Assembly: GCA_020349965.1 (NCBI GenBank)
Contig: CP070705.1
Coordinates: 1,117,650-1,181,649 of the forward strand
DNA length: 64,000 nt
Direction of reading: 5' to 3'
DNA from: Caldifarciminota bacterium
GTDB lineage: Bacteria; Hydrothermota; Tepidihabitantia; SM23-42
The position numbers and the translations under genes are program-made. The notes under the pieces were generated by a model that had not been told where the DNA came from, searched no databases, and was given only the letters and a program-made list of their open reading frames with translations. Below are positions 2,616 through 29,800 of this stretch, piece after piece. Every line of letters begins with the position of its first letter. The first letter of the stretch is position 1.

Positions 2616-2622
2616 CAACTGT

Positions 2623-2650
2623 ATTATATATATATAAGGTTACATATCAA
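2623..2650 (-). promoter_or_regulatory. Promoter of the YbbR-domain gene (leaderless)
   Basis: -35 TTGATA (2645-2650), 16-bp spacer, -10 TATAAT (2623-2628) on the minus strand. The -10 box ends 7 nt before the ATG at 2615, so transcription should begin at or beside the start codon. Confidence 0.8.
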
Positions 2651-2708
2651 GTAAGAAATATGTAGGCCTGTTGGTTCATTGGTACAAATGAAAAATCATT
2701 CCAGTTGG

Positions 2709-3980: not shown

Positions 3981-3987
3981 GCTCTCG

Positions 3988-4890
3988 TCAATATTTCTGA
4001 CAGAGCCAGACCATTATGCTCTTCTGAATGTGAAGACGGTTTTCCGCTTCGTCGAATACTATCGAATGCGGTCCATCTATGACCTCATCGGTTATCTCTT
4101 CGCCGCGGTGTGCCGGAAGGCAGTGCATTATGAGGTGATCCTCTTTGGCATCTCTCAATAAATCTGAATTGATCTGGAACCGAGAGAATGTTTTCTTCCT
4201 CTTCTCGGCTTCGATCTCCTGCCCCATAGAGGCCCAGACGTCCGTATATATTATGTCTGCGTTTCTGATCGCCTCGCGTGGTTCGTTCGTAAGCACGACG
4301 TTCTTAGCTCTTACGGTATAATTTCTTTCCGGTTCGTACCCAGCCGGCGTTGCAATGTGGAGCCGGAAACCGAGTATGGTTGAGGCGGCAACAAATGAAT
4401 TGCACACGTTGTTTCCATCACCTACAAATGCAAGGGTAATATTTTCAAGAGATCCTTTGTGTTCGGTCACCGTAAAGAGGTCTGCCATGATCTGGCAGGG
4501 ATGTTCTAGGTCTGAAAGGCCGTTTATAACCGGTATTGTGGCATTTTTTGCCAAGTCCTCAACTGTTTTGTGCGCGAAGACTCGAGCCATGATAATGTCC
4601 ACCCAGCGCGAAAGGTTCAGGGCTGCATCGGGTACGCTTTCGCGCTTTCCGAGCTGGATGTCGGCTGGCGCGAGGTATATCGCGTGTCCGCCCAATTGAG
4701 TCATGCCCGTTTCAAAGGTCACTCTCGTCCTCAATGACGGTTTCTCGAAGACCATTGCCAGGGTTTTGTCTTTCAGTATACGATGTTCGATCCCTTTCTT
4801 TTGGGATTCCTTGAGTTTCTTGGCCAGTTCGAATACTTCAAATATCTCATTCTTTTTCAGACATTCCATGGTAAGAAAATCTCTCTTCAT
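3988..4890 (-). CDS. argF: Ornithine carbamoyltransferase
   Basis: Makes citrulline from ornithine and carbamoyl phosphate in arginine biosynthesis (or the reverse in catabolism). 300 residues, the usual length. Visible motifs are the carbamoyl-phosphate loop 'EKPSLRTRVTFE', 'HPCQIMADLFT', 'FVGDGNNVCNS' and the ornithine-site 'MHCLPAHRGEEI'. The reading frame stays open for 61 codons upstream. I start at the ATG at 4890 because GGAGG sits 4 nt before it, it gives the normal OTC N-terminus (MKRDFLTM), and a good promoter lies inside the putative extension. No other arg genes are in the window. Confidence 0.96.
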   Translation of the reverse strand: MKRDFLTMECLKKNEIFEVFELAKKLKESQKKGIEHRILKDKTLAMVFEKPSLRTRVTFETGMTQLGGHAIYLAPADIQLGKRESVPDAALNLSRWVDIIMARVFAHKTVEDLAKNATIPVINGLSDLEHPCQIMADLFTVTEHKGSLENITLAFVGDGNNVCNSFVAASTILGFRLHIATPAGYEPERNYTVRAKNVVLTNEPREAIRNADIIYTDVWASMGQEIEAEKRKKTFSRFQINSDLLRDAKEDHLIMHCLPAHRGEEITDEVIDGPHSIVFDEAENRLHIQKSIMVWLCQKY

Positions 4891-16454: not shown

Positions 16455-19400
16455 TTAACGGAGGAGGATTGTTTTTATCGTCTGCAATGTGTTCTCTGCC
16501 TCGAGGCGTATGAAATAGACACCTTGAGGCACGAGCCTGCCGACCGAATCGGTCCCATCCCAGTGGACGACTGATTCTTGATCCTTGATGTTTGATACTG
16601 GATTCAGTTCTTTGACTACCCTTCCTGCAGCGTCATAGACCACGAGCGTATGTTTCTCCATCGAGTATCCAGCATCGAGTATCGAGTATCTTATCTGCAC
16701 GTCGCTCCGGAACGGATTGGGCCAACACGACAGGAGGAGCACTGCAGTGTTGCCGTGCGATCTGAGTTCTCCTACGCCGGTCGGCGGGATGCCGAAATAG
16801 CCCATGATCGAGTCGAGGAGCGCCGCCTTTGTCGACGGTTGAATCGTATCGACCAACCCGCTCAACTCGAACGATAACCCGACCGTCCGGTTATCTGCGG
16901 CAACAGCGCAACCGTAATTAGAATACGATTTTTTGAAGATCAGCTGCGAGCCGGCAGTTGTATCTATGTAGTCAATCATGGTTGCTTCGCCATTGTAAAT
17001 GAAGGACATATTCTGAGTGAACGTGCCGTTGCAGCCATCTACACCGGCAAATGCTCCGATCGAATTGGAAATTGTCTCTATTCCAAATAATTGTCCGAAA
17101 TTATAACCGTGGTTGACCAGGGCATTATACCAGACGTCGCCGCCTTCGAGATATGTTTTTCCGCTCTGTGCCTGCAGATAGTAGTCTATCTCATATCCTA
17201 TCTGACTGGTATCGCTGATGAAATATCTATAGGGGTATACTCCGGTACAGATAAATATCGATCTGTACAGAGAAAGACAATCATATGGTATGTCTATGCT
17301 ATAATCTCCGTAATACGCCAGGGAATTTAACAGAGAATCGATAACCGGACCGCTGGTGTGGTTTGGGTCAGGGTCCCACACCAGGTAATCTTTCTGACCC
17401 ACTTGGATCGTGATATTGAGGGTCGCCGTTGACACGCCCGATACTACGCAAACCGTTATGTCTGTTGTGTAACCGGCGGGGATGCCGGGATGAGCTTCAA
17501 TTATGAAAGGGTCTGTTTGATTAGGTCCGACACTGTCCGGAAGTATATTTCCGAATGAAGCGGTCGAGTCAATTAGAGTTATGAGCGAATCACTGCAAGT
17601 TATCGCGGCGGTGACGTTTTCGGCCCTTCCTGAGCCGGTGTTCAGCAACTCCACATATAGTGGGCCCACCGAACCGGCCGGTATGTACTTCAGGTGATCA
17701 TTGAAATAGTGGTCATGGTACGAAAGTATGGGTGCGCGGTTCATGAATGTCAGGTCAGATGTCCATAGCGAGCTCCCCGAATCACGGATGCGCAGGCAAA
17801 GTCTGATCTCATGTTCATCAGGAGCATTCGTGTCGATGACGACATTGTAGCCGTCTGGGTACACGCAAACTGATTCATAGGGTGCGATATTGCCGCAGTA
17901 TCTTATCGTATCGTATAGCGTGCATAATGTATCGGGGGTTGTCTTTTCGATAATGGCCGAAATGCCGTATGCAGTTGCATCACCCCAGTTCTTCAGAGTA
18001 AACGGTATTTCAATGTCTTCACCCGGATTCGCTACGCCGTCTCCATTGCCTCCGATTGAATCCAACAGTTGCCACGTGAATAGCTGAACGCAAGGACCGC
18101 CCGTGTATAATACCGGCCGTGCATTGGAATATGGTTTTAGATTTTGGCCGGTGACTGTGATATAGACGGAATCGCCGGGAATATGCAGGGTATCGATGAA
18201 TTGAATGCCGCCATTGCGGTTCGTGTACCCATAATGGTAGAACGTCGTGTCGCGCTTTGCTGCAAGACACACGAGCGCGCCTGCTACTGCAGTGGAATTA
18301 TGCTCTACGTAGACATTCACCGTGCATATTCCGGTATGGAAATACATATTGTGTCCGACCAGTATTTCTCTGGGTGTATAAGTCCACATCTTCATTTCCG
18401 GATCGCCGAGGCATATCCAGCTGTGGTATTCGAGGAGATCACTGAACTGCGCATAATATTCAAGGCGTCCTGCCTCGGCTGCAACGCCCAGTCCGCCACT
18501 GTCACTGAATAGACATGCAGTAGTACCACGACACAGCGCGCTACGCATTTCCGCAGCCTCGTACAAAGAAGTCGTTGTGCCGAAGAACGCGATGACACCT
18601 CTTGGCTGGCTTGGTGTTCCCGCGACCGTCCATTCGGTACCGATGCCTTCTACGGTAGCACAAGTTGCCGACAAGACGACAGGCATCTCATAGCCGTTTG
18701 ACATCTGGGATGCATAAATGCCTGCGAATGGCCACAGCCAATCGCCGCCGCCAATACCACGGTAGAGAATATACGACCGGCCGTCGTTTATTGCATTCAG
18801 TACGTCTGCACTATCATCACCCAGTTCGTAGGAGAATGAATCTATGTGCGTATAACCCGCATCGAACATGAATTGATGGGCGTAGCGGGCATCTGCCCAG
18901 TACAGTGCGGCCGAAGAAGGCGCTCCCTGTTCCCATTCATTGGCTATCGTCACACCTCGCCGAAACCATGATGGATCGGGTGAGAGCGGCGGATTCTTTT
19001 CATAACCCAGTATCTTCCCGATGACCGTTTGTGCTTCGAGTGTGTCCGATACCCAGAGCCGACCGTGGTATAGTTCATTGTGAAAGTCACCGCTGACATT
19101 GGCGTAGTAGTTGTCGCTGTGCGAGACAATGCTTCCGACATGCATGAAGCGAGGAAAAGGCACCTGGTATTTATTGCCGACGATCAGCAGATATTCGGGC
19201 CGGATCTGCCAGGTATTATAGGCGTTCACAATGTAATTTCTGATCTGGATCGAATCGGTGCCGGTTTCCGATAGTCTGACGATCTTTGCCTTCATGCCCT
19301 TTTGTGTCTTCCACTCAGCCAGAGGTTGCAGTGCCGTGTAGTAACTGTCGTGGGTGACGATGAGGTACCGTGCACCGGATTCCTGCGCCCGAAGAGCTGT

Positions 19401-19478
19401 GCTGAACAGTGATACAATTAGCAGCAAAATTACACTGATTCTGCGAGACGCGGGTGCACCGGGCAGGTTGCCTCTCAT
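16455..19478 (-). CDS. C25 (gingipain)-family secreted protein 2, catalytic His replaced by Ile
   Basis: 1007 residues with a signal peptide (ISVILLLIVSLFSTALRA). The C25 domain begins ARYLIVTHDSYYTALQPLAEW; the nucleophile Cys273 is in LSATCATVEG, but the histidine position reads G-I242-G (YRGIGGGDW). After ICLGDPEMKMWT come Ig/CARDB-like domains (GNGDGVANPGEDIEIPFTLK; SVGPLYVELLNTGSG), then a region (about 700-900) around DYLVWDPDPNHTSGPVIDSL and YLEGGDVWYNALVN resembling a glutamine-amidotransferase-like fold, and a FlgD-like C-terminal domain. The start ATG overlaps the stop of the Ycf48-like gene by 4 nt (ATGA). The heptamer blocks at 16573-16692 encode part of the C-terminal domain. Confidence 0.88.
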   Translation of the reverse strand: MRGNLPGAPASRRISVILLLIVSLFSTALRAQESGARYLIVTHDSYYTALQPLAEWKTQKGMKAKIVRLSETGTDSIQIRNYIVNAYNTWQIRPEYLLIVGNKYQVPFPRFMHVGSIVSHSDNYYANVSGDFHNELYHGRLWVSDTLEAQTVIGKILGYEKNPPLSPDPSWFRRGVTIANEWEQGAPSSAALYWADARYAHQFMFDAGYTHIDSFSYELGDDSADVLNAINDGRSYILYRGIGGGDWLWPFAGIYASQMSNGYEMPVVLSATCATVEGIGTEWTVAGTPSQPRGVIAFFGTTTSLYEAAEMRSALCRGTTACLFSDSGGLGVAAEAGRLEYYAQFSDLLEYHSWICLGDPEMKMWTYTPREILVGHNMYFHTGICTVNVYVEHNSTAVAGALVCLAAKRDTTFYHYGYTNRNGGIQFIDTLHIPGDSVYITVTGQNLKPYSNARPVLYTGGPCVQLFTWQLLDSIGGNGDGVANPGEDIEIPFTLKNWGDATAYGISAIIEKTTPDTLCTLYDTIRYCGNIAPYESVCVYPDGYNVVIDTNAPDEHEIRLCLRIRDSGSSLWTSDLTFMNRAPILSYHDHYFNDHLKYIPAGSVGPLYVELLNTGSGRAENVTAAITCSDSLITLIDSTASFGNILPDSVGPNQTDPFIIEAHPGIPAGYTTDITVCVVSGVSTATLNITIQVGQKDYLVWDPDPNHTSGPVIDSLLNSLAYYGDYSIDIPYDCLSLYRSIFICTGVYPYRYFISDTSQIGYEIDYYLQAQSGKTYLEGGDVWYNALVNHGYNFGQLFGIETISNSIGAFAGVDGCNGTFTQNMSFIYNGEATMIDYIDTTAGSQLIFKKSYSNYGCAVAADNRTVGLSFELSGLVDTIQPSTKAALLDSIMGYFGIPPTGVGELRSHGNTAVLLLSCWPNPFRSDVQIRYSILDAGYSMEKHTLVVYDAAGRVVKELNPVSNIKDQESVVHWDGTDSVGRLVPQGVYFIRLEAENTLQTIKTILLR
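16573..16692. repeat. Paired inverted heptamer blocks in C25 gene 2
   Basis: Plus strand 16573-16607 is five heptamers: gattctt gatcctt gatgttt gatactg gattcag. 16658-16692 is five more in the opposite sense: ccatcga gtatcca gcatcga gtatcga gtatctt (read on the minus strand: GATACNN). The block starts are 85 nt apart. Both blocks are translated, into the two loops that flank the conserved strand YDAAGRVV of the C-terminal domain. Confidence 0.85.
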
Positions 19479-20770
19479 TTTTTTTCGGTCAAAACTAATT
19501 TCATGCTGGATACCGATTGCGGGGTTCTGAGCTCCACAAAATAGATGCCAGGAGGGAGTTGTTTGCCGCTATCATCCGTACCATCCCACTGAACGACTGA
19601 TCCTGGATTCTGGATGCTGGATATCAGATGAAAGGATCTAACAAGACGTCCACCAGCATCGTAGATACGCAGGGCCGGTTCTTGTATTAAGTATCTAGAA
19701 TTTAGTATCGAGTATCTAATCTGTGTGATGTTCGAGAAAGGGTTCGGTTGAGCATTAAGCGTGACGGTTGCCGGTGCAGCAGTAGTGTTTTCTTGTATTC
19801 CGACACGTTGCCAGTTCTGCCCGCCATTGGTGGTACGAAGGATATAATTATAACCGCATACCAGACCGTGCTCGTGATCTGAAAAATCAACGTCGAACAA
19901 TGTGCTGTCCGCGGGGTTGCTTTGGACAGCCCAGGTGTTGCCGCCATCCGTTGTATGTATTATTGTCCCGGACTTGCCGACCGCCCATCCTTCCTGATCT
20001 ACAAAGTCCACTGCCCTTAAGTAATACGTATTAGAGGGAAGACTGACAGGACTCCAGGTAGAACCGCTATTCGTTGTTTTCCAGACAAGCGGCGAATAGT
20101 CGATCTCGTCACCACCCACCACGATGCCGTCAAATATGTTGAAGAAATGGATATCAAAAAAATCTTCATACCCAGCGGTATGATATCCGCTGAGCGTATC
20201 CCATATGATGCCGCCATCATTTGACGTGAGGATATATCCTTGTCCGGTGACCACTGAATCCGGCCATCCCGCACATATCCAGCTATCCCATTGATTGATT
20301 ATTGATACGCCATAATATTCAGCCTGATACCACTCAGTGAACACTTGTTCCCAGACAACCCCGCCGTTCGTTGTTCTTGTGATAGTGCCATCCCCGCCAA
20401 CGGAGATACCGTAATTATGGTCGAGGAATTCGATACGTGTTCCGTATTTTGAAAACCCTGCGATCTGCCTTTCCCAGTAATTACCTCCGTCCGACGTGTG
20501 AAGGATTTCTGCAGCATGGAGGTTGTGCTTGCCCGTTGTCCAGGCGTTCATACTGTCAAGACACGTTACATCGAAGAGCCGTCTGCTGTAGGGATCTGGC
20601 GGTGCGTCTTGGGGAATCCAGGTCAAGCCCCCATCCGTCGTATAGAGGATCAGTACGGTATCGATCGCCACAACCCAGCCGTGCAGGTTATCCGGTGCAA
20701 GTGTACAGCCGTGGTAGTTGATGGCAAGAGAAGCGGATGCAAATGCCAGCAGCAAAATCACAAATTTCAT
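19475..20770 (-). CDS. Secreted Ycf48-like beta-propeller protein with C-terminal sorting domain
   Basis: 431 residues with a signal peptide (MKFVILLLAFASASLA). It has repeated seven-bladed propeller motifs of the Ycf48/BNR type: ILYTTDGGLTWIPQ, ILHTSDGGNYWERQ, ITRTTNGGVVWEQV, WKTTNSGSTWSPV, IIHTTDGGNTWAVQ and ILRTTNGGQNWQRV, interleaved with GWAVGKSG-type strands. A FlgD-like C-terminal domain follows (AQPNPFSNITQIRYSIL, IYDAGGRLV, WDGTDDSGKQLPPGIYFVEL). Its stop overlaps the start of C25 gene 2. Its own start is 85 nt after C25 gene 3, with AAGGGGG as ribosome-binding site; I see no clear promoter in that gap. The function is unknown; a cell-surface binding scaffold is plausible. Confidence 0.88.
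   Translation of the reverse strand: MKFVILLLAFASASLAINYHGCTLAPDNLHGWVVAIDTVLILYTTDGGLTWIPQDAPPDPYSRRLFDVTCLDSMNAWTTGKHNLHAAEILHTSDGGNYWERQIAGFSKYGTRIEFLDHNYGISVGGDGTITRTTNGGVVWEQVFTEWYQAEYYGVSIINQWDSWICAGWPDSVVTGQGYILTSNDGGIIWDTLSGYHTAGYEDFFDIHFFNIFDGIVVGGDEIDYSPLVWKTTNSGSTWSPVSLPSNTYYLRAVDFVDQEGWAVGKSGTIIHTTDGGNTWAVQSNPADSTLFDVDFSDHEHGLVCGYNYILRTTNGGQNWQRVGIQENTTAAPATVTLNAQPNPFSNITQIRYSILNSRYLIQEPALRIYDAGGRLVRSFHLISSIQNPGSVVQWDGTDDSGKQLPPGIYFVELRTPQSVSSMKLVLTEKK
19599..19718. repeat. Paired inverted heptamer blocks in the Ycf48-like gene
   Basis: 19599-19633: gatcctg gattctg gatgctg gatatca gatgaaa. 19684-19718: gtattaa gtatcta gaattta gtatcga gtatcta. Same layout as in C25 genes 2 and 3: two 35-nt blocks of five heptamers in opposite orientation, with starts 85 nt apart. 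Confidence 0.85.
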
Positions 20771-20855
20771 TCTTTTACCCCCTTATGTTAACCGTGGTTG
20801 TCACGGTGCTATCACAAGCAAGCTCACAATACAGCACCTGCTGCATTGTTCTATC
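20771..20855 (-). promoter_or_regulatory. Intergenic region with two hairpins between C25 gene 3 and the Ycf48-like gene
   Basis: It holds two inverted repeats. One is ACCGTG (20791-20796) with CACGGT (20802-20807), a 6-bp stem with a 5-nt loop. The other is CAGCA-CC-TGCTG at about 20833-20844. Neither is followed by a U-run on the minus strand, so they are not classical terminators. No consensus promoter was found. Read-through with attenuation or mRNA processing is the simplest reading. Confidence 0.4.
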
Positions 20856-23800
20856 CTAATCTATTAATACCACTTTGTCGGTGATACTAAACTGATCGCC
20901 TTGCAGTATAATGAAGTATATGCCTCCTGGTACCCGTCGGCCAGAGGCATCAATGCGATCCCACAACAAACTTGATTCATGATTCATGATGGTCGATTCA
21001 AGATTAAACGATTTGACTACGCGCCCTGAGATATCATAAATCGCCAATCTAAGGTTCGGTATCGTGTATCGTGTATCCTGTATCCTGTATCTTATATTCA
21101 GCTCTCCCCGGGACGGATTAGGTGATATGTAGAGGATATTACGCCGGCCAGTGGGCGTCAATAGCTCAGACACGCCGGTGAAGGTGTCCGGAGGATCGGT
21201 CGTGAATTTTATCGCCCTGCTGTCTGTCAATGATGCTGCTGCGGTCGGATAGATGTCTGCATACGTATACTCAATGCCCGTTGTGTGGTCATAGTTCTCG
21301 ATACCCACAGTTGCATAGTTATGCCAGATATCATCATTGGTTATGTCCAGGTATTGGAAAACGACTTCGCCGTCGCCGGTTTGGGTCGGATTGTATAGCG
21401 GATCGTATAATATCACTTCGAATGTCTGCAGCTCTGAAGGCGTAGGGTTTGCATAGTCGTGGATGTGTTGTATCCTTGAATATTCGATTATGAAACGATG
21501 ATTCGTAGCATCATACCAGTAGCAGACTACGCCACTTGAATCCGTCGCGTTCGGGTCCAAATCGTCCCAGAAAGGTGATACGAGCAAAGGAGGTCCGCCA
21601 GTACCCGGGATATGCCAGTTGTACATGTCTGCTATCCAGGTCGAATCCATCGCGATGTAACCGTCGGAACATATAGAGATGCGGTCGTACCAGTTTCCGT
21701 AAAATTTGAAACTGAACGGCAGTGGAATAGTCTTCGTCTCGTCCGCTCCCAGGCTTATCGAATCACCCGGGCCGTTATAAGGTGGTCTGGGGTCGATCTC
21801 GATCCATCCGTAAACGGGTGCTTCTGAATAGTCCGTGTCACCATTGTCGTAAGCATAGTATCCATACGCGTCCGGGCCAAGCGGACTTGTGGAATCTATT
21901 ATTCCGACGGTGAGTCGAAAACCGGTCGTATCGACGAATCCGTTGTTGCCGTTCAATATCAACGAGAAACGTACGCTCGTGCCCGGAGTCAACGATGAAT
22001 TGGCCGAAAGTGTGAATGGATTTCCACTATTCGCTGCTGAATCGCCGGCCAAGATATTGCCGAAATAACCCATTGAGTCGGTCACGATCAGACCGCTGTT
22101 AGCGGATCTGAGGATCCCCGATACATTCATTCCCTCGAAGCCGCCAGTGTTCTCTACCCAGACCAAGAAATCGCGCGTTTCGCCCGGCTCGAGTATGCCA
22201 TTGCCATCCAGTACCTGAGTTCGCTGATGGACAAGATTCGGTGCCCTTGCCGTTATCCATATACTCCCTGACCACGTTCCTTGATCTGATGTGATGTCAA
22301 GGGTGAATTTTAAAATATGATCGTCGCGGATAATCTGCGACACATCGAATATGTATGGAGCCGTGGTTGCAGTGGCGCCGGGGACTATGTTCCCGTAGGT
22401 TTTGATCGAATCGGTAATAGTAACGTTGAGGTCGTTGGTCGACAAGCGTGCCGAGACATTCGTGGCAGTCGTTGATGTTCCGTAGTTCCTCAACGTTACG
22501 CCGAGTTCGATCGTCTCGCCAGGATTCACTTCTCCGTTATTATTCCCACCTGGATCACTGATCGTGTGTGAATCATATCCTACGAAGACTGAGGCGTCGT
22601 TGACCATGGTGTGGCCGGAATATGGTTTGAAATTGTGTTTTGTTATCGTTACAAATAGAGTATCCTGTGTCGACGTGGTGAAATTGAAGGCGGCATTACC
22701 GGTCTCATCCGTGAATTCTATTTCCTTGACCTCGCCTGACTTATATAGGCTCGCCATGGCGCCGGCGACCGGTTGGGAGGCAGAGTTAGTGACATGAACA
22801 GAGAACGAGCTACTGCCCGTCTGAATCGACGGAACATGTGTGACAATGAATGAATCAGGGATTCCGGTCCAGACTTCAAGCGAGGGATCACCGAGCAGAT
22901 TGAAGGCGTGGAAGTAGAACGAACTTCCTGACGTAATTGTGGTATCGTTGGGAAAATTCAAGTACAATTCCATCTTGCCGCGGTACAATGCTGCTCCGAG
23001 GCTGGATATGTCGTCTTCCAGAATCCCCCAGTAAACGCCATAGTCGAGGCAGTTATTCCATCGCGTATGACTTTGGGGTGATGAGGCGCCAAAAAATGCC
23101 ACTGCACCTTTTGGTGCAACAGGATTGCCTGCTCTCAGCCATGCTTCGCCAAAGCAAGTGCCTGCGCCAAAATTCCCCGTCCAGCAGACAATGCTCGTGA
23201 CTATAGGCAGCTTCCAGCCGTTGTTCAGAGCATATACGTCAGCACTCCCGAAAAATGGAAATGGCCAGCTATCGATGTTCCCGTCGCCCGACCGGTAATT
23301 GACAAAAGTAACGCCGTTGTTTATTGATGCAGTGATTCCCGAAGGCGGCATCGGATCGAATACCGTGTCGACTGCGTTGAATCCGTATTCGAAAAACTTG
23401 TCACGTACCCACCGTTTGGTCGGTACGGGCGTTGTCATACCGCTCGGTAGATTTGCGCCAACCATCAAGGCGCGCGAGTACCAGGAAGGATCGCTCATCG
23501 TGGGATTTGTCTCATACCCTATGATCTTCGCTACGACCGTATTCAATTCGTTATCGATGCTCACGGATAGACGACCGATGAGCAATTCCGAAAGGAAATC
23601 GTCGCCGTCGATCAACGTATAGGGGTGATCGGTCGCTGATGGGTTGGTGAACGCGGGGACATGATTTACGTCACCGACCAACAACACATATTCGGGCCGA
23701 GGGGACCAGGTGTTATAGGCATTTGCGATGTAATCTCTTATCAGTGTCGGTGTACTTCCAGTCTGCGCTGTCGTTCTTATTTCGACGTCCCATCCCTTTT

Positions 23801-24320
23801 TCTCCTTCCATTGTGCCAGCGGCTGTATTTCGTCGACGAATTCGCTCGGGGCAATGATCAGGTATCCACGTGGTCTCTGGTCGCCGCTGTTCCGGAAATT
23901 AAGGATAAGATCCTCAAACGTTTCACCGAGTGATGGGCTGAGTTCAATTTGCATCGATGAAGGTATCAGGTCTATTCTTATCTCAGCCGATTTCACGAAA
24001 TGTCTCATGTTATTCTTGACATACGACGGTTCGATGAGAATGGGGTAGAGGCTTGCGCCATTGAGTCGGACGGGCGAGCCGATGCGCACAGGTTCACTTT
24101 CCTCGCTTTCGAGAGAATTATGCGATGAGTCGAACTCTGCACGGTCATAGACGTAGGTTGGTGGAGTTTCAGAAATGACGAATCTGGCAATCGGTTGCTG
24201 TTCGTTCTTCTTGAATTCCGAGAATTCAACGCGAAGGAAGAGCGCTGACGGAGTCGATCTGAGGATCTGAACCTGATCGCCCTCAGCGGCGAGGAAAAGA
24301 AAGAGAGCGAATGCCGTCAT
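20856..24320 (-). CDS. C25 (gingipain)-family secreted protein 3 with N-terminal domain, catalytic His replaced
   Basis: 1154 residues with a short signal (MTAFALFLFLAAEG). Residues about 15-145 form an extra N-terminal propeptide-like domain not found in the other two C25 proteins. The C25 domain runs from about 150 (RGYLIIAPSEFVDEIQPLAQW); Cys379 is in SIVCWTGNF, while the histidine motif reads G345-D346-G347. LLGDPSLEVWTG follows, then CARDB-like domains (GNNNGEVNPGETIELGVTLR; GNGILEPGETRDFLVWVE), a domain with DAYGYYAYDNGDTD and LPFSFKFYGNWYDRISICSDGY, and a FlgD-like C-terminal domain. The ATG overlaps the LVIVD gene stop by 4 nt, tying it to the poly-gamma-glutamate operon. Confidence 0.9.
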   Translation of the reverse strand: MTAFALFLFLAAEGDQVQILRSTPSALFLRVEFSEFKKNEQQPIARFVISETPPTYVYDRAEFDSSHNSLESEESEPVRIGSPVRLNGASLYPILIEPSYVKNNMRHFVKSAEIRIDLIPSSMQIELSPSLGETFEDLILNFRNSGDQRPRGYLIIAPSEFVDEIQPLAQWKEKKGWDVEIRTTAQTGSTPTLIRDYIANAYNTWSPRPEYVLLVGDVNHVPAFTNPSATDHPYTLIDGDDFLSELLIGRLSVSIDNELNTVVAKIIGYETNPTMSDPSWYSRALMVGANLPSGMTTPVPTKRWVRDKFFEYGFNAVDTVFDPMPPSGITASINNGVTFVNYRSGDGNIDSWPFPFFGSADVYALNNGWKLPIVTSIVCWTGNFGAGTCFGEAWLRAGNPVAPKGAVAFFGASSPQSHTRWNNCLDYGVYWGILEDDISSLGAALYRGKMELYLNFPNDTTITSGSSFYFHAFNLLGDPSLEVWTGIPDSFIVTHVPSIQTGSSSFSVHVTNSASQPVAGAMASLYKSGEVKEIEFTDETGNAAFNFTTSTQDTLFVTITKHNFKPYSGHTMVNDASVFVGYDSHTISDPGGNNNGEVNPGETIELGVTLRNYGTSTTATNVSARLSTNDLNVTITDSIKTYGNIVPGATATTAPYIFDVSQIIRDDHILKFTLDITSDQGTWSGSIWITARAPNLVHQRTQVLDGNGILEPGETRDFLVWVENTGGFEGMNVSGILRSANSGLIVTDSMGYFGNILAGDSAANSGNPFTLSANSSLTPGTSVRFSLILNGNNGFVDTTGFRLTVGIIDSTSPLGPDAYGYYAYDNGDTDYSEAPVYGWIEIDPRPPYNGPGDSISLGADETKTIPLPFSFKFYGNWYDRISICSDGYIAMDSTWIADMYNWHIPGTGGPPLLVSPFWDDLDPNATDSSGVVCYWYDATNHRFIIEYSRIQHIHDYANPTPSELQTFEVILYDPLYNPTQTGDGEVVFQYLDITNDDIWHNYATVGIENYDHTTGIEYTYADIYPTAAASLTDSRAIKFTTDPPDTFTGVSELLTPTGRRNILYISPNPSRGELNIRYRIQDTRYTIPNLRLAIYDISGRVVKSFNLESTIMNHESSLLWDRIDASGRRVPGGIYFIILQGDQFSITDKVVLID
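20974..21093. repeat. Paired inverted heptamer blocks in C25 gene 3 (best copy)
   Basis: 20974-21008 is five heptamers: gattcat gattcat gatggtc gattcaa gattaaa. 21059-21093 is five heptamers of the other sense: gtatcgt gtatcgt gtatcct gtatcct gtatctt. The block starts are 85 nt apart. The encoded loops read RYRIQDTRYTIPN and NLESTIMNHESSLLWD. The heptamer unit is out of step with codons, so repeats appear in protein only every 21 nt. Confidence 0.9.
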
Positions 24321-25288
24321 TCTTCCTCCACTATGATAACCAACCCCATGTCGCGGTCGGCGATGTAGATCGTGTCGCTTCTTACGCAGACTCCGTTTGC
24401 GTATGACGTAGGCATGCTGCCATACAGCAGAGGCTCATTTGGGTCTGCGATATCGATGATCTGAAGGCCTGCGTCGCCGTCGGCAACGAACGCTTTGTCG
24501 TTAACAATGAAAACATCGTTTGCATACTCCGGTGTATCGTACTGGCTCGCGATCGAAGGATTTTCGATATCCGAGACGTCTATGATTATAAGGCCTCCTC
24601 TGCCGTCGGCAACATACGCATAGTAGTAATCGGCGGAGATCCCGCGAGCATTTGACGGTGTATCTATCCAACCGACAAGTGCTGTGCTGTCCGGTCTAGC
24701 TAAGTTGATCATTTGCAGACCCATCTGTTCGCATGCGAGAAAAGCTATTGAATCAAGCATGTACACTCCCCTGGCATCTCCTGGTGTTGTGAATCTTCTT
24801 ACGTAGGAGGGGTACTGGGGGTATGTGTACACATCCTCCACATGGAACCAGTAGTTGGCAGCAATGTAGACATACATCGTATCATCGAGTGGTGCCGCGA
24901 CATCGTTTGCATAGATCGAAGGGTCCTGTCCGACAAATACGGGGTTTGTGGGATCTGCAATGTTCAAGGTAACGAGACCGCCGCTCGTCGATGATCTGAG
25001 CGCGATGTAGGCAAAAGTATCACGCACCGCAACGCTGCCGACGTCACGATCTGTCAGATATTGTCCGATCACGTAAGTCGATTCCGGATCGCTGATATTT
25101 ACGATCTGCAGCCCTCCCTGTCCGTTAGCCACGTATGCAAGGCTGTCGACGAGCACGACCTTGTTTGCGTAGCCGGGCAGGGGGCAAACGCCGATAATAG
25201 CAAAATTAGCCTGCGGTGTCGAAACCTCAGGGCGTCCGCAGAACAGTGATATCAAAAGAACTAATGGAAGGTATTGCTTTCTTCTCAC
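24317..25288 (-). CDS. Secreted LVIVD-repeat beta-propeller protein
   Basis: 323 residues with a hydrophobic N-terminus (YLPLVLLISLFCG) that may be a lipoprotein signal, although Phe before the Cys is not canonical. At least six LVIVD-type repeats are visible: AYVANGQGGLQIVNISDPES, GGLVTLNIADPTNPVFVG, GLQMINLARPDSTALVG, AYVADGRGGLIIIDVSDIEN, AFVADGDAGLQIIDIADPNE and IYIADRDMGLVIIV. Such proteins are usually surface propellers of unknown ligand. It has a GTG start after AGGGGG, 8 nt downstream of the barrel gene. Its stop overlaps the start of C25 gene 3 by 4 nt. Confidence 0.87.
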   Translation of the reverse strand: MRRKQYLPLVLLISLFCGRPEVSTPQANFAIIGVCPLPGYANKVVLVDSLAYVANGQGGLQIVNISDPESTYVIGQYLTDRDVGSVAVRDTFAYIALRSSTSGGLVTLNIADPTNPVFVGQDPSIYANDVAAPLDDTMYVYIAANYWFHVEDVYTYPQYPSYVRRFTTPGDARGVYMLDSIAFLACEQMGLQMINLARPDSTALVGWIDTPSNARGISADYYYAYVADGRGGLIIIDVSDIENPSIASQYDTPEYANDVFIVNDKAFVADGDAGLQIIDIADPNEPLLYGSMPTSYANGVCVRSDTIYIADRDMGLVIIVEEE

Positions 25289-25296
25289 ATAACCCC

Positions 25297-26289
25297 CTAA
25301 TAATAAAACTCGAAACCTGCGCCTATTCTGTACTTTGTGTAATTTTTGATCTCATCGATGTCCGGTAAGATCTCCGATGTTGAATTTCTCCACTGGCGCA
25401 TAAAATCCAGCTTGAATAGAAGACCGGTCTTGATGCGCGAGCGACTGCCAAAACGGATCCGATGGAGGTGGTCAATCCGGCTGAAATGGAGTGAATCTTC
25501 GTTCGTCGAAGCGTTGTAGCGTCTGAAACTATAGTCATAAGAGCAGTTGAATGTAGTAGCAAGAATGACTCGGGTTTGCAGGGAGAGGTTCAGGGCGATA
25601 TCATGTTCGTAGTACGAGCCGTCGGGCACCAATTCGGAACTGAGGGTCGAAACATCTGCCGAATCGGCCCTCGCGTTCTTGTAGTCGTAACTGAAGGCGA
25701 ACTCAAGGAATTTATGCAGTTTCTTTTCTATTGCTAAAGATACGATGTGAGCTTCTGCGTCGTATCTGTTGAATTCGGTGATATAATCATCCCACTTGTG
25801 CCGGTATGCAGCGCTTATGATAATGTCTTGCTCGGTCGTGAATGATATCTTCCCCGTTAGCAGGTGGTATGCTACTTCACAACCGATATACTCCGTGCTC
25901 TCACCGAAAGGGTTACGGTAGTACCGTATCATGTAATTTGGAATGAATTGATAAGATAATTTGACCGCATATCGTCCAAGCGACTGTCTAAGACCGATGG
26001 TGTAGTTCTGGTAATTCTTCTGTTTATTGACCAGATAGTTACGCGTACCGAGACCGAAATTGAATGTCGTCGTACGTTTGCCGAACAGTCGATTTCTGAG
26101 CAGGAGGGCAAAATCGACAGAAGTGGTCAGATCGTCATAGGTCTCGAACGGGAAACGGTACGGACGCACTGAGTTGAGGAAGTCATCAATGTATGATTGC
26201 GAGTAGGCGTATACATTGTCGTCGTATGTAAAGTCGATATCGAGATTGTAGGAATGATCCCACGCAGCAATTAACAGAATTGCTATCAT
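25297..26289 (-). CDS. Predicted outer-membrane beta-barrel protein
   Basis: 330 residues. It has a short signal (MIAILLIAAWDHS), then alternating amphipathic strands rich in Tyr, Arg and Asp with turns (TTTFNFGLGTRNYL, YTIGLRQSLGRYAVKLSYQF, EFAFSYDYKNAR, TTFNCSYDYSFRRY). It ends in YRIGAGFEFYY; a terminal aromatic residue is the usual signal for BAM-dependent barrel insertion. I start at the ATG at 26289, which overlaps the upstream stop (ATGA); the longer frame up to 26454 lies inside the upstream gene. Its place in the poly-gamma-glutamate operon suggests a role in passing or anchoring the polymer at the outer membrane, an inference from position. Confidence 0.75.
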   Translation of the reverse strand: MIAILLIAAWDHSYNLDIDFTYDDNVYAYSQSYIDDFLNSVRPYRFPFETYDDLTTSVDFALLLRNRLFGKRTTTFNFGLGTRNYLVNKQKNYQNYTIGLRQSLGRYAVKLSYQFIPNYMIRYYRNPFGESTEYIGCEVAYHLLTGKISFTTEQDIIISAAYRHKWDDYITEFNRYDAEAHIVSLAIEKKLHKFLEFAFSYDYKNARADSADVSTLSSELVPDGSYYEHDIALNLSLQTRVILATTFNCSYDYSFRRYNASTNEDSLHFSRIDHLHRIRFGSRSRIKTGLLFKLDFMRQWRNSTSEILPDIDEIKNYTKYRIGAGFEFYY

Positions 26290-27116
26290 CTTTCTTCTAC
26301 AAGGAATCTCAATGCAGCACTCTCCGCTACTGTGCCGGTCAGGGTGAATCTCAGTGTGTGTCTGCCTTCCTTTACGTTCATGTGGAAGCTGCGAGCGTTC
26401 GACGGTACGATGTTCTTTCTGTCCCGGTAGGTGATGATCTGCGATTTGTAGCATTTGTGAGCGAACTTCTCGATGTCGGCGCCCTCTTCGACAGTGATTG
26501 TGTAGTTCTGATCCCCGATCATCCTCTCGTCATAATTGAGCCTGGAGATGATGCGCAGCCTTGCGGGACCGCTGACAGTGAGGTTAATGTCATCTCCTCT
26601 TTTCAGTTCGTAATACTTGAGAATCTTCTCTTCTTCGATTGCTTCGATAGTTGAGCCATATTCAGACGCCTGGATCTCGTTCCATTTCTTCGGTGATTCA
26701 TAAGCGAATTTGACCAGTATGGTGTCATTGGGTGATGACCAGTGAGTAAGTTTGTATTCGTTCGAACCTTCGGGTATTTCTATGTAAAAGGAACGCCATT
26801 TGCTGAGCGGTCTACCTTTCTTGTCCTTAGTCACGTCAGATTTTTCGGATTCCAAGGTTATGATATTCTCGTCAATCTTGTTTTCCTGGAGGATCAGTTT
26901 ATATATTTGGCTTCCGAGTCTATCTTTTTGCCAGAATATCCTTGTGTATACTCGCAGATATGTGGGCCCCTCGGCGGAAAATGAAATCGGGCTATTTTTG
27001 GTCAGCAAGAGATATTCATCGGTCTGTTTTGTCACGATCTCGACTTCCCATTTCTTACGGGGATTGATGTCTTTTATTTGTGCGAGAAGGCATATTGCCA
27101 GCATTAACTTAATCAT
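26286..27116 (-). CDS. Secreted protein with an internally duplicated domain, function unknown
   Basis: 276 residues with a signal peptide (MIKLMLAICLLAQIK). Two homologous halves are visible. Residues about 50-125 contain GPTYLRVYTRIFWQ, LGSQIYKLILQE and SFYIEIPEGSNEYKLT; residues about 185-270 contain GPARLRIISRLNYDE, IGDQNYTITVEE and SFHMNVKEGRHTLRFT. Each half reads as a beta-sandwich. I do not recognise a named family. It overlaps pgsW by 8 nt upstream and the barrel gene by 4 nt downstream, so it belongs to the polymer operon. A periplasmic adaptor or polymer-binding role is possible but unproven. Confidence 0.75.
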   Translation of the reverse strand: MIKLMLAICLLAQIKDINPRKKWEVEIVTKQTDEYLLLTKNSPISFSAEGPTYLRVYTRIFWQKDRLGSQIYKLILQENKIDENIITLESEKSDVTKDKKGRPLSKWRSFYIEIPEGSNEYKLTHWSSPNDTILVKFAYESPKKWNEIQASEYGSTIEAIEEEKILKYYELKRGDDINLTVSGPARLRIISRLNYDERMIGDQNYTITVEEGADIEKFAHKCYKSQIITYRDRKNIVPSNARSFHMNVKEGRHTLRFTLTGTVAESAALRFLVEER

Positions 27117-28185
27117 TCTTACTCCTTTTTAAATATCTATCTATGTCATAACGCAAGACTACGAATAAAATAACCGCAAGTATCAGTACGATCGCAACCG
27201 CCATTGGTACCGAATACCTGTACTCATAATACAGACGTCCCTCGCCGGGATTCGGTAATGGCAAGGGTGCTAAAGGCAAATCACTTTTCAGCGCGAGCAG
27301 CTCGATGTCCGCGAGGTTGATCACAGGGATGCCTTTTCTGGAAAATCGGGCGAGCAGCCCGTTTCCTGCTTTCAGGGAGTGCGGTTTTATCAAGCCATTA
27401 TCTCCATCGAGCCCGGCGAACGCCGTCGCTTTCTCGGCCGCGTTGACGAATAGTCTGATTCTGCCGGACGATTCATAGATTTTCATCTTCTCCTGTATTG
27501 CTTCATCGAGGTTAGCGGCGGTAAGAAGCGATACGCCATTCCGCATTGCCGCTTCTTCAATTATCTCGCGACCGGCAGGGCTCAAACCCCTGCCCACATC
27601 GTCTTCGCCGCCGAACGTGGCAACAGTTGATTTGTACTTGAAAATGTCGTTTGACCTGCACAATGCTTCTATATCTAGGTAGGTGAGCTCAGGAAAATTC
27701 GCTCCCCACATCGACGAGCTTACCGAAGTTATGATCACCGCTTGGAGTTCGAGAGTCTTCATCGCGCTCATGACTGAAATATTGAGGGCAGGGTAGGATC
27801 CTGTGAGGAGAACGGCAACTGTGTCGTTCTTCCGCACACCCGTCTGTTTGAGATAATGGATGACGAGTGCTGCAAAATTGGAGTTCGTTGAGGTCAATTT
27901 TGCATCGAGGTCGCCGCGCTCAGTCGTTATGGGAGAATACTGGAGGCCGATGAGTCCTGTTTCATTTGGATCGTTGATCCTATCGATCGGTATACCCATT
28001 TCATAGACGGTTTTCTTCACGTGTGCAAATGCGGTCTGCGCTGTTCTCGCAGCATCGAGTTTCTCTTTATGATACTTGGCTTCGACCCTGGTCTTGGAAT
28101 TTAATTCCAGTGTCATCAATCCGATCGTAATCAGAGTGACCACGGACAATGACAGAATCGATATTTTACCTTGGCGTCTTTTCAT
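27109..28185 (-). CDS. pgsW: Poly-gamma-glutamate system protein (PgsW-like)
   Basis: 358 residues with two membrane segments, near the N-terminus (ISILSLSVVTLITIGLMTLEL) and the C-terminus (VPMAVAIVLILAVILFVVL). The extracytoplasmic middle contains GLIGLQYSPITTERGDLDAKLTSTNSNFAALVIHYL and AVLLTGSYPALNISVMSAM. This matches my memory of the family that accompanies pgsB and pgsC in Gram-negative poly-gamma-glutamate loci in place of PgsA/PgsE. The biochemical role is not established to my knowledge. The ATG overlaps the pgsC stop by 4 nt. Confidence 0.8.
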   Translation of the reverse strand: MKRRQGKISILSLSVVTLITIGLMTLELNSKTRVEAKYHKEKLDAARTAQTAFAHVKKTVYEMGIPIDRINDPNETGLIGLQYSPITTERGDLDAKLTSTNSNFAALVIHYLKQTGVRKNDTVAVLLTGSYPALNISVMSAMKTLELQAVIITSVSSSMWGANFPELTYLDIEALCRSNDIFKYKSTVATFGGEDDVGRGLSPAGREIIEEAAMRNGVSLLTAANLDEAIQEKMKIYESSGRIRLFVNAAEKATAFAGLDGDNGLIKPHSLKAGNGLLARFSRKGIPVINLADIELLALKSDLPLAPLPLPNPGEGRLYYEYRYSVPMAVAIVLILAVILFVVLRYDIDRYLKRSKND

Positions 28186-28634
28186 GGGAGCACAACTCCG
28201 TTGTGTAATATGATTATGATCAAACGAACGAGACTGGAGACAATAAGCATGGCCGAGATCGTGGGTATAATGCCCTGGCGCGCGATCCAGTATGCGATCA
28301 GCCCGGGGATGACGAACCCTACGGTCTGCAGGTTAAAACTCACGCCATCAAGAGTCACAATGGGAGATATGCGCGTCACGTAGGCTATTAGATATCCCAC
28401 CAAGATCGATATGATCAACAATCTGCGTCCATAAATGATTATATAGGAAGAAAGCATTTTGATGATCAGATAGGTGATTAAGCCAGCGAGTATTGTGGCA
28501 CAAACCTGCAGAGGATTGTGCAGTACAAGTGCTATGTAGCCGGGTACCACTATTCCACCTGCAGCAAGACCAATGGTCTCGGTAAGGATGAGGCTGAGGA
28601 ACATTCCGATGCCTACTGACTCAATGAGTAGCAT
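28182..28634 (-). CDS. pgsC: Poly-gamma-glutamate synthase membrane subunit PgsC/CapC
   Basis: 150 residues, the usual length, with four to five membrane helices. Family features are the start of the first helix (IGMFLSLILTETIGLAAGGIVVPGYIAL), LLIISILVGYLIAY and FVIPGLIAYWIARQGI. PgsC forms the membrane complex with the PgsB ligase and is needed for polymer synthesis and translocation. Its ATG shares one base with the pgsB stop (TAATG), so the two subunits are made together. Confidence 0.93.
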   Translation of the reverse strand: MLLIESVGIGMFLSLILTETIGLAAGGIVVPGYIALVLHNPLQVCATILAGLITYLIIKMLSSYIIIYGRRLLIISILVGYLIAYVTRISPIVTLDGVSFNLQTVGFVIPGLIAYWIARQGIIPTISAMLIVSSLVRLIIIILHNGVVLP

Positions 28635-29800
28635 TATCTCCTCTCTTTACGTGTAAACTCATTCATTAACTCTTCGCCGTAACCAACCGTGTTGCCTATT
28701 GCAAAGAGCAGGCTGTTATCGGCTACGAACTCGGAGATTTTCTCGATGACGTCGGATGGAGGCATATTGCCGACATCGAGGATCTTATCTTGTTCGCTAA
28801 TCCTGGTGAGTTTTCTTGCCAGTACTTGTGTGCCGTGGCCGGTCAGTATATATTGATCGCCTCTCAACCGGTTACGTATCAACTCTGCCATTTGGAACGA
28901 GCGGTCGATCCGATCATCCCGGCAGTTAATCAGGATATTCAACTGGGGGTAATTCTTTTCTATCATCTGCCATATCAAATAAGTCGAATCCGGATCATTT
29001 GCGGCCATGGCGTTTACCAAGGTGATTTCTTTAGTGCCAAGTTGCACTCTATGCCGACGCAAAACGCCCGGATCAGGATTTGCATCATACATTGCGGCGA
29101 GGGCATGCTCTTCGTCAACACCGAAATGTCTACATACATCAAGCGCGATGGCAAGATTGTCTCTGTGTTCGATATATGGGAACTCACTCATCTGAGATGG
29201 TGAGATCCGTTTTTCATCCGAGATGTAAGGGTCAATGCTTTTCTTTTTCAGAATAGGCTCGTGGCCTAGCATTATGTTCCGGTGTCCGAGAAAGACTGTT
29301 GCATCATTGGGCAACGCCTTCAAGAAATGCCTGCCGATATCTTTGATTGAAGGACCCATGACATCGAGGTGGTCGGCGCGGACATTGGTGATGACAACGG
29401 CATTGGGCTTGACAATGTGAACGGCTTCCGAGTACTGCAGATCGGGCCTCAAGGCCATGCATTCGAGGACGATCGCGTCTGGTTGCTCATTCGCAGCCCT
29501 TTTGAATATCTCTACCTGCTCGCGAATGTTAGGCATGCCGAGACGCATTACAGGTTGCTCGCTGTGGCTGTCATGAATGAAACTGGCTTTCGTCCCTGTA
29601 GTTTTTGCAATGACTTTCTTGCCCCCGCCTCTTAGCCCGGCAGCGATCAAACGGGTTACCGAAGATTTACCACGGCTGCCGTTGACCCAGATGCGTATTG
29701 GTATTGACCTGACTCTTCTTTCGTGATTGACTTTTTCAATCCTGAGAAAGATGATGTAAAGGCCGATCAAAAGCAGAACTGCATAAATGCCCAAAAACAT
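28634..29800 (-). CDS. pgsB: Poly-gamma-glutamate synthase subunit PgsB/CapB
   Basis: 388 residues, with an N-terminal membrane anchor (IYAVLLLIGLYIIFLRI) and then a Mur-ligase-like ATP-dependent amide ligase domain: P-loop WVNGSRGKSSVTRL, TTGTKASFIHD, DAIVLECMALRPDLQ and TNVRADHLDVMGP. It polymerises glutamate through gamma-linkages using ATP. As first gene of the operon it has a consensus promoter ending 9 nt before the ATG and no ribosome-binding site, so translation is probably leaderless. Gamma-PGA forms capsules, slimes or osmoprotective coats in characterised organisms. Confidence 0.95.
   Translation of the reverse strand: MFLGIYAVLLLIGLYIIFLRIEKVNHERRVRSIPIRIWVNGSRGKSSVTRLIAAGLRGGGKKVIAKTTGTKASFIHDSHSEQPVMRLGMPNIREQVEIFKRAANEQPDAIVLECMALRPDLQYSEAVHIVKPNAVVITNVRADHLDVMGPSIKDIGRHFLKALPNDATVFLGHRNIMLGHEPILKKKSIDPYISDEKRISPSQMSEFPYIEHRDNLAIALDVCRHFGVDEEHALAAMYDANPDPGVLRRHRVQLGTKEITLVNAMAANDPDSTYLIWQMIEKNYPQLNILINCRDDRIDRSFQMAELIRNRLRGDQYILTGHGTQVLARKLTRISEQDKILDVGNMPPSDVIEKISEFVADNSLLFAIGNTVGYGEELMNEFTRKERR

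What the first reader, a model, noticed from the sequence alone, without database searches (positions are those of the whole stretch)
26286..27116. Unknown secreted protein built from two copies of the same domain, between pgsW and the barrel
The halves align by eye (GPTYLRVYTRIFWQ with GPARLRIISRLNYD; LGSQIYKLILQE with IGDQNYTITVEE; SFYIEIPEGSNEYKLT with SFHMNVKEGRHTLRFT). I cannot name the fold. Its position suggests a periplasmic link for the polymer.
Basis: partly seen in the sequence, partly recalled or inferred. Interest (0 to 1): 0.5.

Follow-up and report, generated by a model that had tools for sequence, protein, structure and literature searches.

The report
Jelly-roll partner of polyglutamate exporter pore
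A probably secreted protein made of two copies of one sugar-binding-like fold travels with, and in some relatives is fused to, an outer-membrane pore next to the genes for a polyglutamate coat, so it is probably the part that hands the polymer across the space between the two membranes.

Summary
The ORF is real (26286-27116, minus strand, 276 aa) and its halves are homologous: hhalign 99.2%, E 1.5e-18; 0 of 500 shuffles reached the window protein's score. The predicted model (pLDDT 87.8) is two all-beta domains; domain 2 matches CBM6/35/36-type jelly rolls and cellulose-synthase BcsB (Z 8-9.6, moderate). No Pfam, NCBIfam or PDB sequence family claims it. Its neighbour is a predicted 14-stranded OmpG/CymA-like barrel (Z 24.9). 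In 147 genomes of this phylum (WOR-3/Stahlbacteria) it and PgsW co-occur in 62 (66 and 70 separately). In all 67 of 69 genomes whose contig continues past it, the barrel follows on the same strand (56) or is fused in the same ORF (11). Where the operon is dispersed, it stays with the barrel. Best reading: the periplasmic module of a dedicated outer-membrane export pore for poly-gamma-glutamate, analogous to BcsB/BcsC but no member of those families. Against: G045 keeps the barrel without it; G015 has only a remnant and no barrel; a Cetobacterium plasmid has pgsBCW alone. Transport is inferred, not shown.

The parts
26286..27116 (-). Protein X: probably secreted tandem jelly-roll protein, 276 aa
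27066..27116 (-). N-terminal hydrophobic segment (residues 1-17), probable Sec signal
   Evidence: sequence; helix 2-12 in model; longer signal-like N termini in distant homologues; no signal-peptide program run
26676..27011 (-). Jelly-roll domain 1 (about residues 36-147)
   Evidence: model, repeat alignment
26295..26654 (-). Jelly-roll domain 2 (about residues 155-274)
   Evidence: model, VIA-align matches to CBM35/36 and BcsB
26286..26289 (-). ATGA overlap: stop of X and start of the barrel gene
   Evidence: read
25297..26289 (-). Predicted outer-membrane 14-stranded barrel, 330 aa (likely start 26289, not the upstream ATG 26454)
27109..28185 (-). pgsW (TIGR04332)
28182..28634 (-). pgsC (TIGR04011, PF14102)
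28634..29800 (-). pgsB synthase (TIGR04012)
24317..25288 (-). LVIVD-repeat propeller, probable lipoprotein; next gene after the barrel in this lineage

Best explanation
X is the periplasmic module of an outer-membrane export pore dedicated to the polymer made by PgsB/PgsC, presumably poly-gamma-glutamate. PgsB-PgsC make the chain and pass it through the inner membrane, with PgsW beside them. X, two rigid jelly-roll domains in the periplasm, docks on the periplasmic mouth of the 14-stranded barrel and receives or guides the chain into it. Shown here: the duplication, the predicted folds, co-occurrence, conserved order, and the X-barrel fusion. Inferred: secretion, periplasmic location, docking, contact with the polymer, and the chemistry of the polymer.
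For: Natural X-barrel fusion in one ORF in 11 genomes; separate, adjacent and same-strand in 56; together 67 of 69 genomes with X, the other 2 having contigs that end at X. Fusion parts align to the stand-alone profiles: C part vs barrel 99.9%, E 3.2e-31; N part vs X 98.4%, E 4.4e-15; crossed controls 0.2-0.4%. X and PgsW: both in 62, X only 4, PgsW only 8, neither 73 of 147 genomes (Fisher 2.8e-27, not corrected for kinship); in 57 of 62, X lies downstream of pgsW on the same strand, 56 within 0.53 kb and one (G131) 1.5 kb away behind two ORFs. In family f17 pgsBC, pgsW and X-barrel lie in three places and X still stays with the barrel. Barrel model: 14 strands, pLDDT 89.3; CymA Z 24.9 over 284 residues, OmpG Z 22.6, both monomeric pores (recalled). 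An even-stranded barrel has both ends on the periplasmic side (general knowledge), so an N-terminal fusion partner should be periplasmic. X domain 2 vs a BcsB jelly roll (5ej1_B residues 52-185): Z 8.4, 107 residues, 3.0 A; BcsB's first jelly roll binds the exporter BcsC (passages of PMC11379886). Conserved charge in X is mostly basic: 13 columns with at least 85% K/R against 5 with D/E, five of them always K/R (positions 55, 59, 108, 192, 221), which would suit an anionic polymer.
Against: G045 (listed as 97% complete) has pgsBCW and the barrel but no X, while two genomes of its genus have X, so X may be dispensable. Net charge of X is zero or negative in 6 of 28 homologues. The jelly-roll fold is common, Z 8-9.6 is modest, and the Foldseek list also holds unrelated jelly-roll proteins, the top row being a diatom PyShell protein. 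No coordinates were available, so whether the conserved arginines form one surface was not tested; domain 1 was barely tested by the structural aligner. Several fusions match the X profile only weakly on their own (domain E 1.3e-4 in G116, 2.6e-5 in G098). Nothing shows that the organism makes the polymer.
Confidence: 0.68

Rival explanations
1. X is an assembly factor or structural collar for the barrel: it helps the barrel fold or gates its periplasmic mouth and never touches the polymer.
For: X stays with the barrel, not with pgsW, when the operon is dispersed, and is fused to it in 11 genomes. The barrel survives without X in G045.
Against: The X-barrel pair hardly occurs without pgsBCW: of 66 X genomes 62 have PgsW; of the other four, three have X at a contig start and one (G080) is a fragmented 85%-complete assembly of family f17. 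So the module goes with the polymer genes even if X itself may not touch the polymer.
Confidence: 0.2
2. X is a surface anchor or receptor: it is exported and holds the finished polymer on the outside of the cell as a capsule tether.
For: CBM-like folds often act on the outside of cells (recalled). The operon also carries a probable LVIVD lipoprotein.
Against: In the fusions X precedes the barrel; both ends of an even-stranded barrel face the periplasm. Pfam finds no Por- or FlgD-type tail on X, unlike the C25 and YCF48-like proteins further downstream.
Confidence: 0.08
3. The fused form is an autotransporter: the N-terminal domains are passengers secreted through their own barrel.
For: N-terminal folded domains plus C-terminal barrel in 11 genomes.
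Against: In 56 genomes X is a separate protein. The barrel is predicted with 14 strands and matches CymA/OmpG (Z 24.9, 22.6) well above the autotransporter EspP (Z 14.9).
Confidence: 0.02

Closest known systems
BcsB of bacterial cellulose synthase (periplasmic, jelly-roll CBD plus flavodoxin-like repeats)
   Same: Internal duplication; jelly-roll domain in the periplasm next to a polymer synthase; in E. coli BcsB's first jelly roll binds the outer-membrane exporter (PMC11379886 passages); VIA-align Z 8.4.
   Different: No flavodoxin-like domains in the X model; 276 aa only; partner synthase is PgsB/PgsC, not BcsA; no sequence relation found.
BcsC / PgaA / PelB type exporters (TPR scaffold plus outer-membrane barrel; PgaA and PelB recalled)
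   Same: Periplasmic module plus outer-membrane barrel, in one chain in 11 of the genomes here, devoted to one polymer synthase.
   Different: Two jelly rolls instead of TPR helices; 14 strands instead of 16 in BcsC.
CBM6/35/36/51 carbohydrate-binding modules
   Same: Jelly-roll fold, Z 7.6-9.6 for domain 2; tandem CBM51 and CBM22 chains among the Foldseek matches.
   Different: No Pfam CBM family reached its cut-off for the 28 homologues; tied to one operon in the loci read, not to sugar-cleaving enzymes.
PgsA/CapA (PF09587), the usual third component of PGA synthesis
   Same: Extracytoplasmic partner of PgsB-PgsC thought to help release or transport the chain (review PMC10897055 passage).
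   Different: No PF09587 match in X. In the window genome the one PF09587 gene is about 1.06 Mb away; across the phylum the family does not co-vary with X (p 0.17), and 18 of 62 X+PgsW genomes show none.
CymA / OmpG monomeric porins (for the neighbour barrel)
   Same: 14-stranded barrel, Z 24.9 and 22.6.
   Different: About 10% identity; those are uptake pores (recalled), this one lies beside a polymer synthase.

Membership tests
BcsB | Repeated jelly-roll CBD plus flavodoxin-like domain | tested here: not met
   Model is all-beta with two domains and no helix of 4 or more residues beyond 2-12
BcsB | Jelly-roll fold of the CBD | tested here: met
   5ej1_B Z 8.4, 107 residues, 3.0 A for domain 2; a moderate score
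BcsB | Encoded beside cellulose synthase BcsA | tested here: not met
   Neighbours are PgsB, PgsC, PgsW and the barrel
CBM6/35/36 families | Sequence match to a CBM model | tested here: not met
   No Pfam CBM model over its cut-off in 28 homologues; the only CBM-like hit was AMPK1_CBM, E 0.01, in 1 of 28
CBM6/35/36 families | Binding of a carbohydrate ligand | not testable with these tools
   Needs a binding assay or a structure
TPR-barrel exporters (BcsC, PgaA, PelB) | Periplasmic TPR helices before the barrel | tested here: not met
   No TPR family hit for X, 28 homologues or 4 of the 11 fusions; beta-only model for X
TPR-barrel exporters (BcsC, PgaA, PelB) | Periplasmic module and barrel in one polypeptide | tested here: met
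   11 of 69 X genomes, one ORF; not in the window genome, where they are two overlapping genes
PgsA/CapA | PF09587 domain | tested here: not met
   No hit at E <= 1
PGA synthesis locus | PgsB, PgsC and PgsW models over curated cut-offs | tested here: met
   382, 123 and 284 bits against cut-offs 222.7, 96.45 and 100
PGA synthesis locus | Product is poly-gamma-glutamate | not testable with these tools
   Needs chemistry; inferred from the gene families

The most novel reading that the evidence does not exclude
This is a dedicated two-part export machine that carries poly-gamma-glutamate through an outer membrane: a tandem jelly-roll periplasmic guide plus a 14-stranded pore, coupled to PgsBCW, with no PgsA at the locus and no TPR scaffold. 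It would be a second, unrelated solution to the problem that BcsB/BcsC solve for cellulose, and an answer to how bacteria with two membranes can secrete this polymer.
Probability: 0.55. Interest if true: 0.68.

Novelty: new variant of a known kind. Interest (0 to 1): 0.52.

Why it matters
PGA synthesis is known mainly from Gram-positive bacteria; Fusobacterium nucleatum is cited as the first Gram-negative producer (reference seen in PMC3815933 and PMC10897055). My searches of the held library (mostly listings, with passages opened in PMC10100824, PMC5362203, PMC4866016 and PMC3796261) showed no paper that describes an outer-membrane route for the polymer; most subscription papers are not held. 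Here a whole phylum offers a compact candidate of five overlapping genes, so the question becomes directly testable by moving the locus into a laboratory host.

Tried and rejected
Pfam, NCBIfam, PHROGs and PADLOC scans of X: only chance-level hits or none. PDB sequence profiles: for X best E 0.053, a phage baseplate protein, taken as chance; for the barrel none at E <= 1. Viral contigs: no relative. Plasmids: no X; one PgsW, on a Cetobacterium somerae plasmid, whose pgsBCW has neither X nor barrel among the annotated genes beside it. The reach outside the phylum rests on one pattern-based scan of genome contigs (24 loci, all titled WOR-3, Stahlbacteria, TA06 or Latescibacterota), which sees close relatives only; distant relatives elsewhere are not excluded.

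PgsA as partner: rejected as a rule, since PF09587 is in 93 of 147 genomes but does not follow X. Autotransporter reading: rejected (see rivals). A pgsW-X fusion (one 615-aa ORF in L054/L098, the same contig) was set aside, because pgsB is broken there too and domain 1 of X is cut short, which points to sequence errors. Pfam hits of barrel homologues support an outer-membrane barrel but do not agree on one family: OMP_b-brl in 4 of 22 (best E 8.3e-10), DUF2490 in 2, BBP2_2, DUF481 and MtrB_PioB in 1 each; the window barrel itself has none of these.

The eight PgsW genomes without X resolve as follows: X found at ORF level, fused to the barrel, in G095, G115 and G116; in G105 a 664-aa frame with barrel matches beside a pgsW fragment, X itself not found; in G016 and G101 the contig ends within about 100 bases of pgsW; in G015 a remnant with a stop and no barrel; G045 is a true absence. 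The four X genomes without PgsW: G014, G098 and G099 have X at a contig start; G080 is a fragmented assembly of family f17.

The barrel profile hits 71 of 147 genomes. G070 has a barrel-like match (E 1.3e-17) without PgsB over cut-off, PgsW or X; G054 has a fragment at a contig start; both count against strict exclusivity of the barrel. In G089, counted among the 56 adjacent cases, the barrel lies in more than one frame. In family f5 only domain 1 of X matches well.

Literature hits that led nowhere: PMC10100824 names only CapA of Leptospira in a table; PMC5362203 only a capA entry of Francisella in a table; PMC4866016 and PMC3796261 only cite the polymer.

Full report
What is there. The ORF at 26286-27116 (minus strand) encodes a 276-residue protein, here called X, with a short N-terminal hydrophobic segment and an AGGAG motif just before its ATG. 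It lies in a tight run of genes on the minus strand: pgsB 28634-29800, pgsC 28182-28634, pgsW 27109-28185, X, an outer-membrane barrel, then an LVIVD-repeat protein at 24317-25288. From pgsB to the barrel, neighbouring genes overlap by 1, 4, 8 and 4 bases; the X/barrel junction is an ATGA overlap, so the barrel most likely starts at 26289 and not at the upstream ATG 26454 of the mechanical ORF list. The window belongs to a 2.3-Mb genome whose relatives are titled candidate division WOR-3 or Stahlbacteria.

Duplication. Splitting the 28-sequence alignment A1 at residue 152/153 and comparing the halves as profiles gives 99.2% probability, E 1.5e-18, over 122 columns at 22% identity. For single sequences 24 of 28 beat all 500 shuffles; in L026, L027, L028 and L030, all divergent, 6, 1, 104 and 6 shuffles reached the score. 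Both copies keep G-P, two basic positions (R55/R59 and R188/R192), an aromatic residue (Y72/Y205) and a glycine (G117/G251), fixed or nearly so.

Fold. AlphaFold2 on an alignment of 24 sequences gives pLDDT 87.8, pTM 0.65: two beta domains, about residues 36-147 and 155-274. Foldseek against the PDB returns 27 hits with E <= 0.001, among them tandem CBM51 and CBM22 chains, but also a diatom PyShell protein (top row), insecticidal Cry proteins and SIDT1, all at low TM-scores (0.2-0.33 by query length). VIA-align, over about 100-120 residues, puts domain 2 on CBM-type jelly rolls (5x7g Z 9.6, 113 residues, 3.0 A; 7ay3 CBM36 Z 9.1; 2w47 CBM35 Z 9.0) and on a BcsB jelly roll (5ej1_B, residues 52-185, Z 8.4, 107 residues, 3.0 A; that this is the first CBD is recalled). 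These Z values are moderate; the tool notes a typical best Z of 7 to 8 for models without a clear match. Domain 1 was scarcely tested in that list and is called a jelly roll because of its homology to domain 2. No sequence family names X.

The neighbour. A model of the barrel on 22 sequences (pLDDT 89.3, pTM 0.85) has 14 strands and matches CymA (4d5b_A Z 24.9, 284 residues, 2.9 A) and OmpG (Z 22.6). Pfam hits are scattered: OMP_b-brl in 4 of 22 homologues, other outer-membrane barrel families in 1 or 2 each, none of them in the window protein.

Company. In 147 genomes of the phylum the X profile hits 66, PgsW TIGR04332 70, PgsB over its cut-off 69 and the barrel profile 71. X and PgsW: both 62, X only 4, PgsW only 8, neither 73; Fisher p 2.8e-27, which ignores kinship. 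In 57 of the 62, X lies downstream of pgsW on the same strand: 56 within 0.53 kb and one (G131) 1.5 kb away with two ORFs between. Of the other five, three are family f17 (G077, G078, G079), one (G120) has both genes near contig ends, and one (G002) has them 46 kb apart in an assembly with masked stretches. X with the barrel is tighter still. I examined loci of 71 genomes: the 66, plus G095, G115 and G116 (X seen only at ORF level), G015 and G045. Of the 69 genomes with X, the barrel follows on the same strand in 56, is in the same ORF in 11, and in 2 (G020, G024) the contig ends at X. The 11 fusions are G087, G094, G095, G097, G098, G099, G100, G102, G103, G115 and G116. For seven of them I aligned the proteins: the parts align to the stand-alone profiles (99.9%, E 3.2e-31 for the barrel; 98.4%, E 4.4e-15 for X) while crossed comparisons give 0.2-0.4%. 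The first domain of the fusions is only weakly similar to X domains (8-38% probability), and some fusions match the X profile weakly on their own.

When the operon is dispersed. In family f17, pgsB-pgsC, pgsW and X-barrel lie on three different contigs with unrelated genes beside them (G077, G078: loci L101-L104, L113, L114), yet X and the barrel remain side by side. In G015 pgsBCW remains, X is a remnant and the barrel is gone. In G045, pgsW is followed by the barrel with no X. Outside the phylum, a Cetobacterium plasmid has pgsBCW with neither among its annotated neighbours. X-barrel thus looks like a unit added to the synthase in this phylum, and X belongs to the barrel more than to pgsW.

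PgsA. PF09587, the family of PgsA/CapA, is in 93 of 147 genomes but does not follow X (p 0.17), and 18 of the 62 X+PgsW genomes show none. In the window genome its single match lies about 1.06 Mb from the locus.

How it may work. Shown: duplication, predicted folds, linkage and fusion. Inferred: secretion through Sec, location in the periplasm (an even-stranded barrel has both ends on the periplasmic side, so a partner fused to its N terminus should be there), docking on the barrel, and polymer handling. The nearest working analogue is cellulose export in E. coli, where BcsB, with two repeats of a carbohydrate-binding-like jelly roll plus a flavodoxin-like domain, sits above the synthase and its first jelly roll holds the N-terminal TPR of the 16-stranded exporter BcsC (passages read in PMC11379886). 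X lacks the flavodoxin domains and no TPR was found, so it is filed in neither family. Conserved charged columns in X are mainly basic (13 against 5), which fits an anionic polymer, but net charge varies from -5 to +12 among homologues and I had no coordinates to test for a surface.

Literature. Papers were seen as search listings and as found passages; none was read whole. What I saw describes neither pgsW nor X nor an outer-membrane pore for PGA; searches for pgsW returned no paper. The reference lists of PMC3815933 and PMC10897055 cite Fusobacterium nucleatum as the first Gram-negative producer.

Verdict. It is a new variant of a known kind of machine. The weakest points are the lack of any experiment, the genome that lost X while keeping the barrel, and the search outside the phylum, which saw close relatives only.

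Noticed in passing
window 24317-25288 and loci L031-L054: An LVIVD-repeat protein, probably a lipoprotein, follows the barrel in 21 of 24 loci; in the other 3 the contig ends. It was not found beside the seven X-barrel fusions read.
   Followed up: partly
window 16455-24320, minus strand: Two large C25 (gingipain-like) peptidases and a YCF48-like repeat protein with Por-type or FlgD-like C-terminal tails follow the pgs operon; a roughly 1150-aa ORF lies at the same place in many of the 24 loci.
   Followed up: partly
L101-L104, L113, L114 (G077, G078): Family f17 has the pgs operon dispersed to three contigs, with X-barrel kept as a pair and pgsW alone among unrelated genes.
   Followed up: yes
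L095 (G045), 2458-4751: pgsW is followed by the barrel with about 35 bases between ORFs and no X, although the genome is listed as 97% complete and two genomes of its genus have X.
   Followed up: partly
G070:C93:21420-22115: A barrel-profile match (E 1.3e-17, 391-aa frame) in a genome with no PgsB over cut-off, PgsW or X; its neighbours were not read.
   Followed up: no
L054 and L098 (same contig): pgsW and a shortened X read as one 615-aa ORF while pgsB is split by a stop; probably sequence errors.
   Followed up: partly
L086/L118 (G089): An X-like protein of 245 aa matches the N-terminal part of the fusions over its length, but the barrel that follows is in more than one frame; the fused gene may be broken here.
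   Followed up: partly
L106, L107 (G029, G035): In family f5 the X profile matches mainly domain 1, in 238-240-aa proteins; the second half has diverged strongly.
   Followed up: no
L084:1547-6436 (Cetobacterium somerae plasmid): The pgsBCW operon there is preceded by a gamma-glutamyltransferase, a DUF6305 protein, a TRAP permease and a desuccinylase-like gene, a different set of accessories.
   Followed up: no
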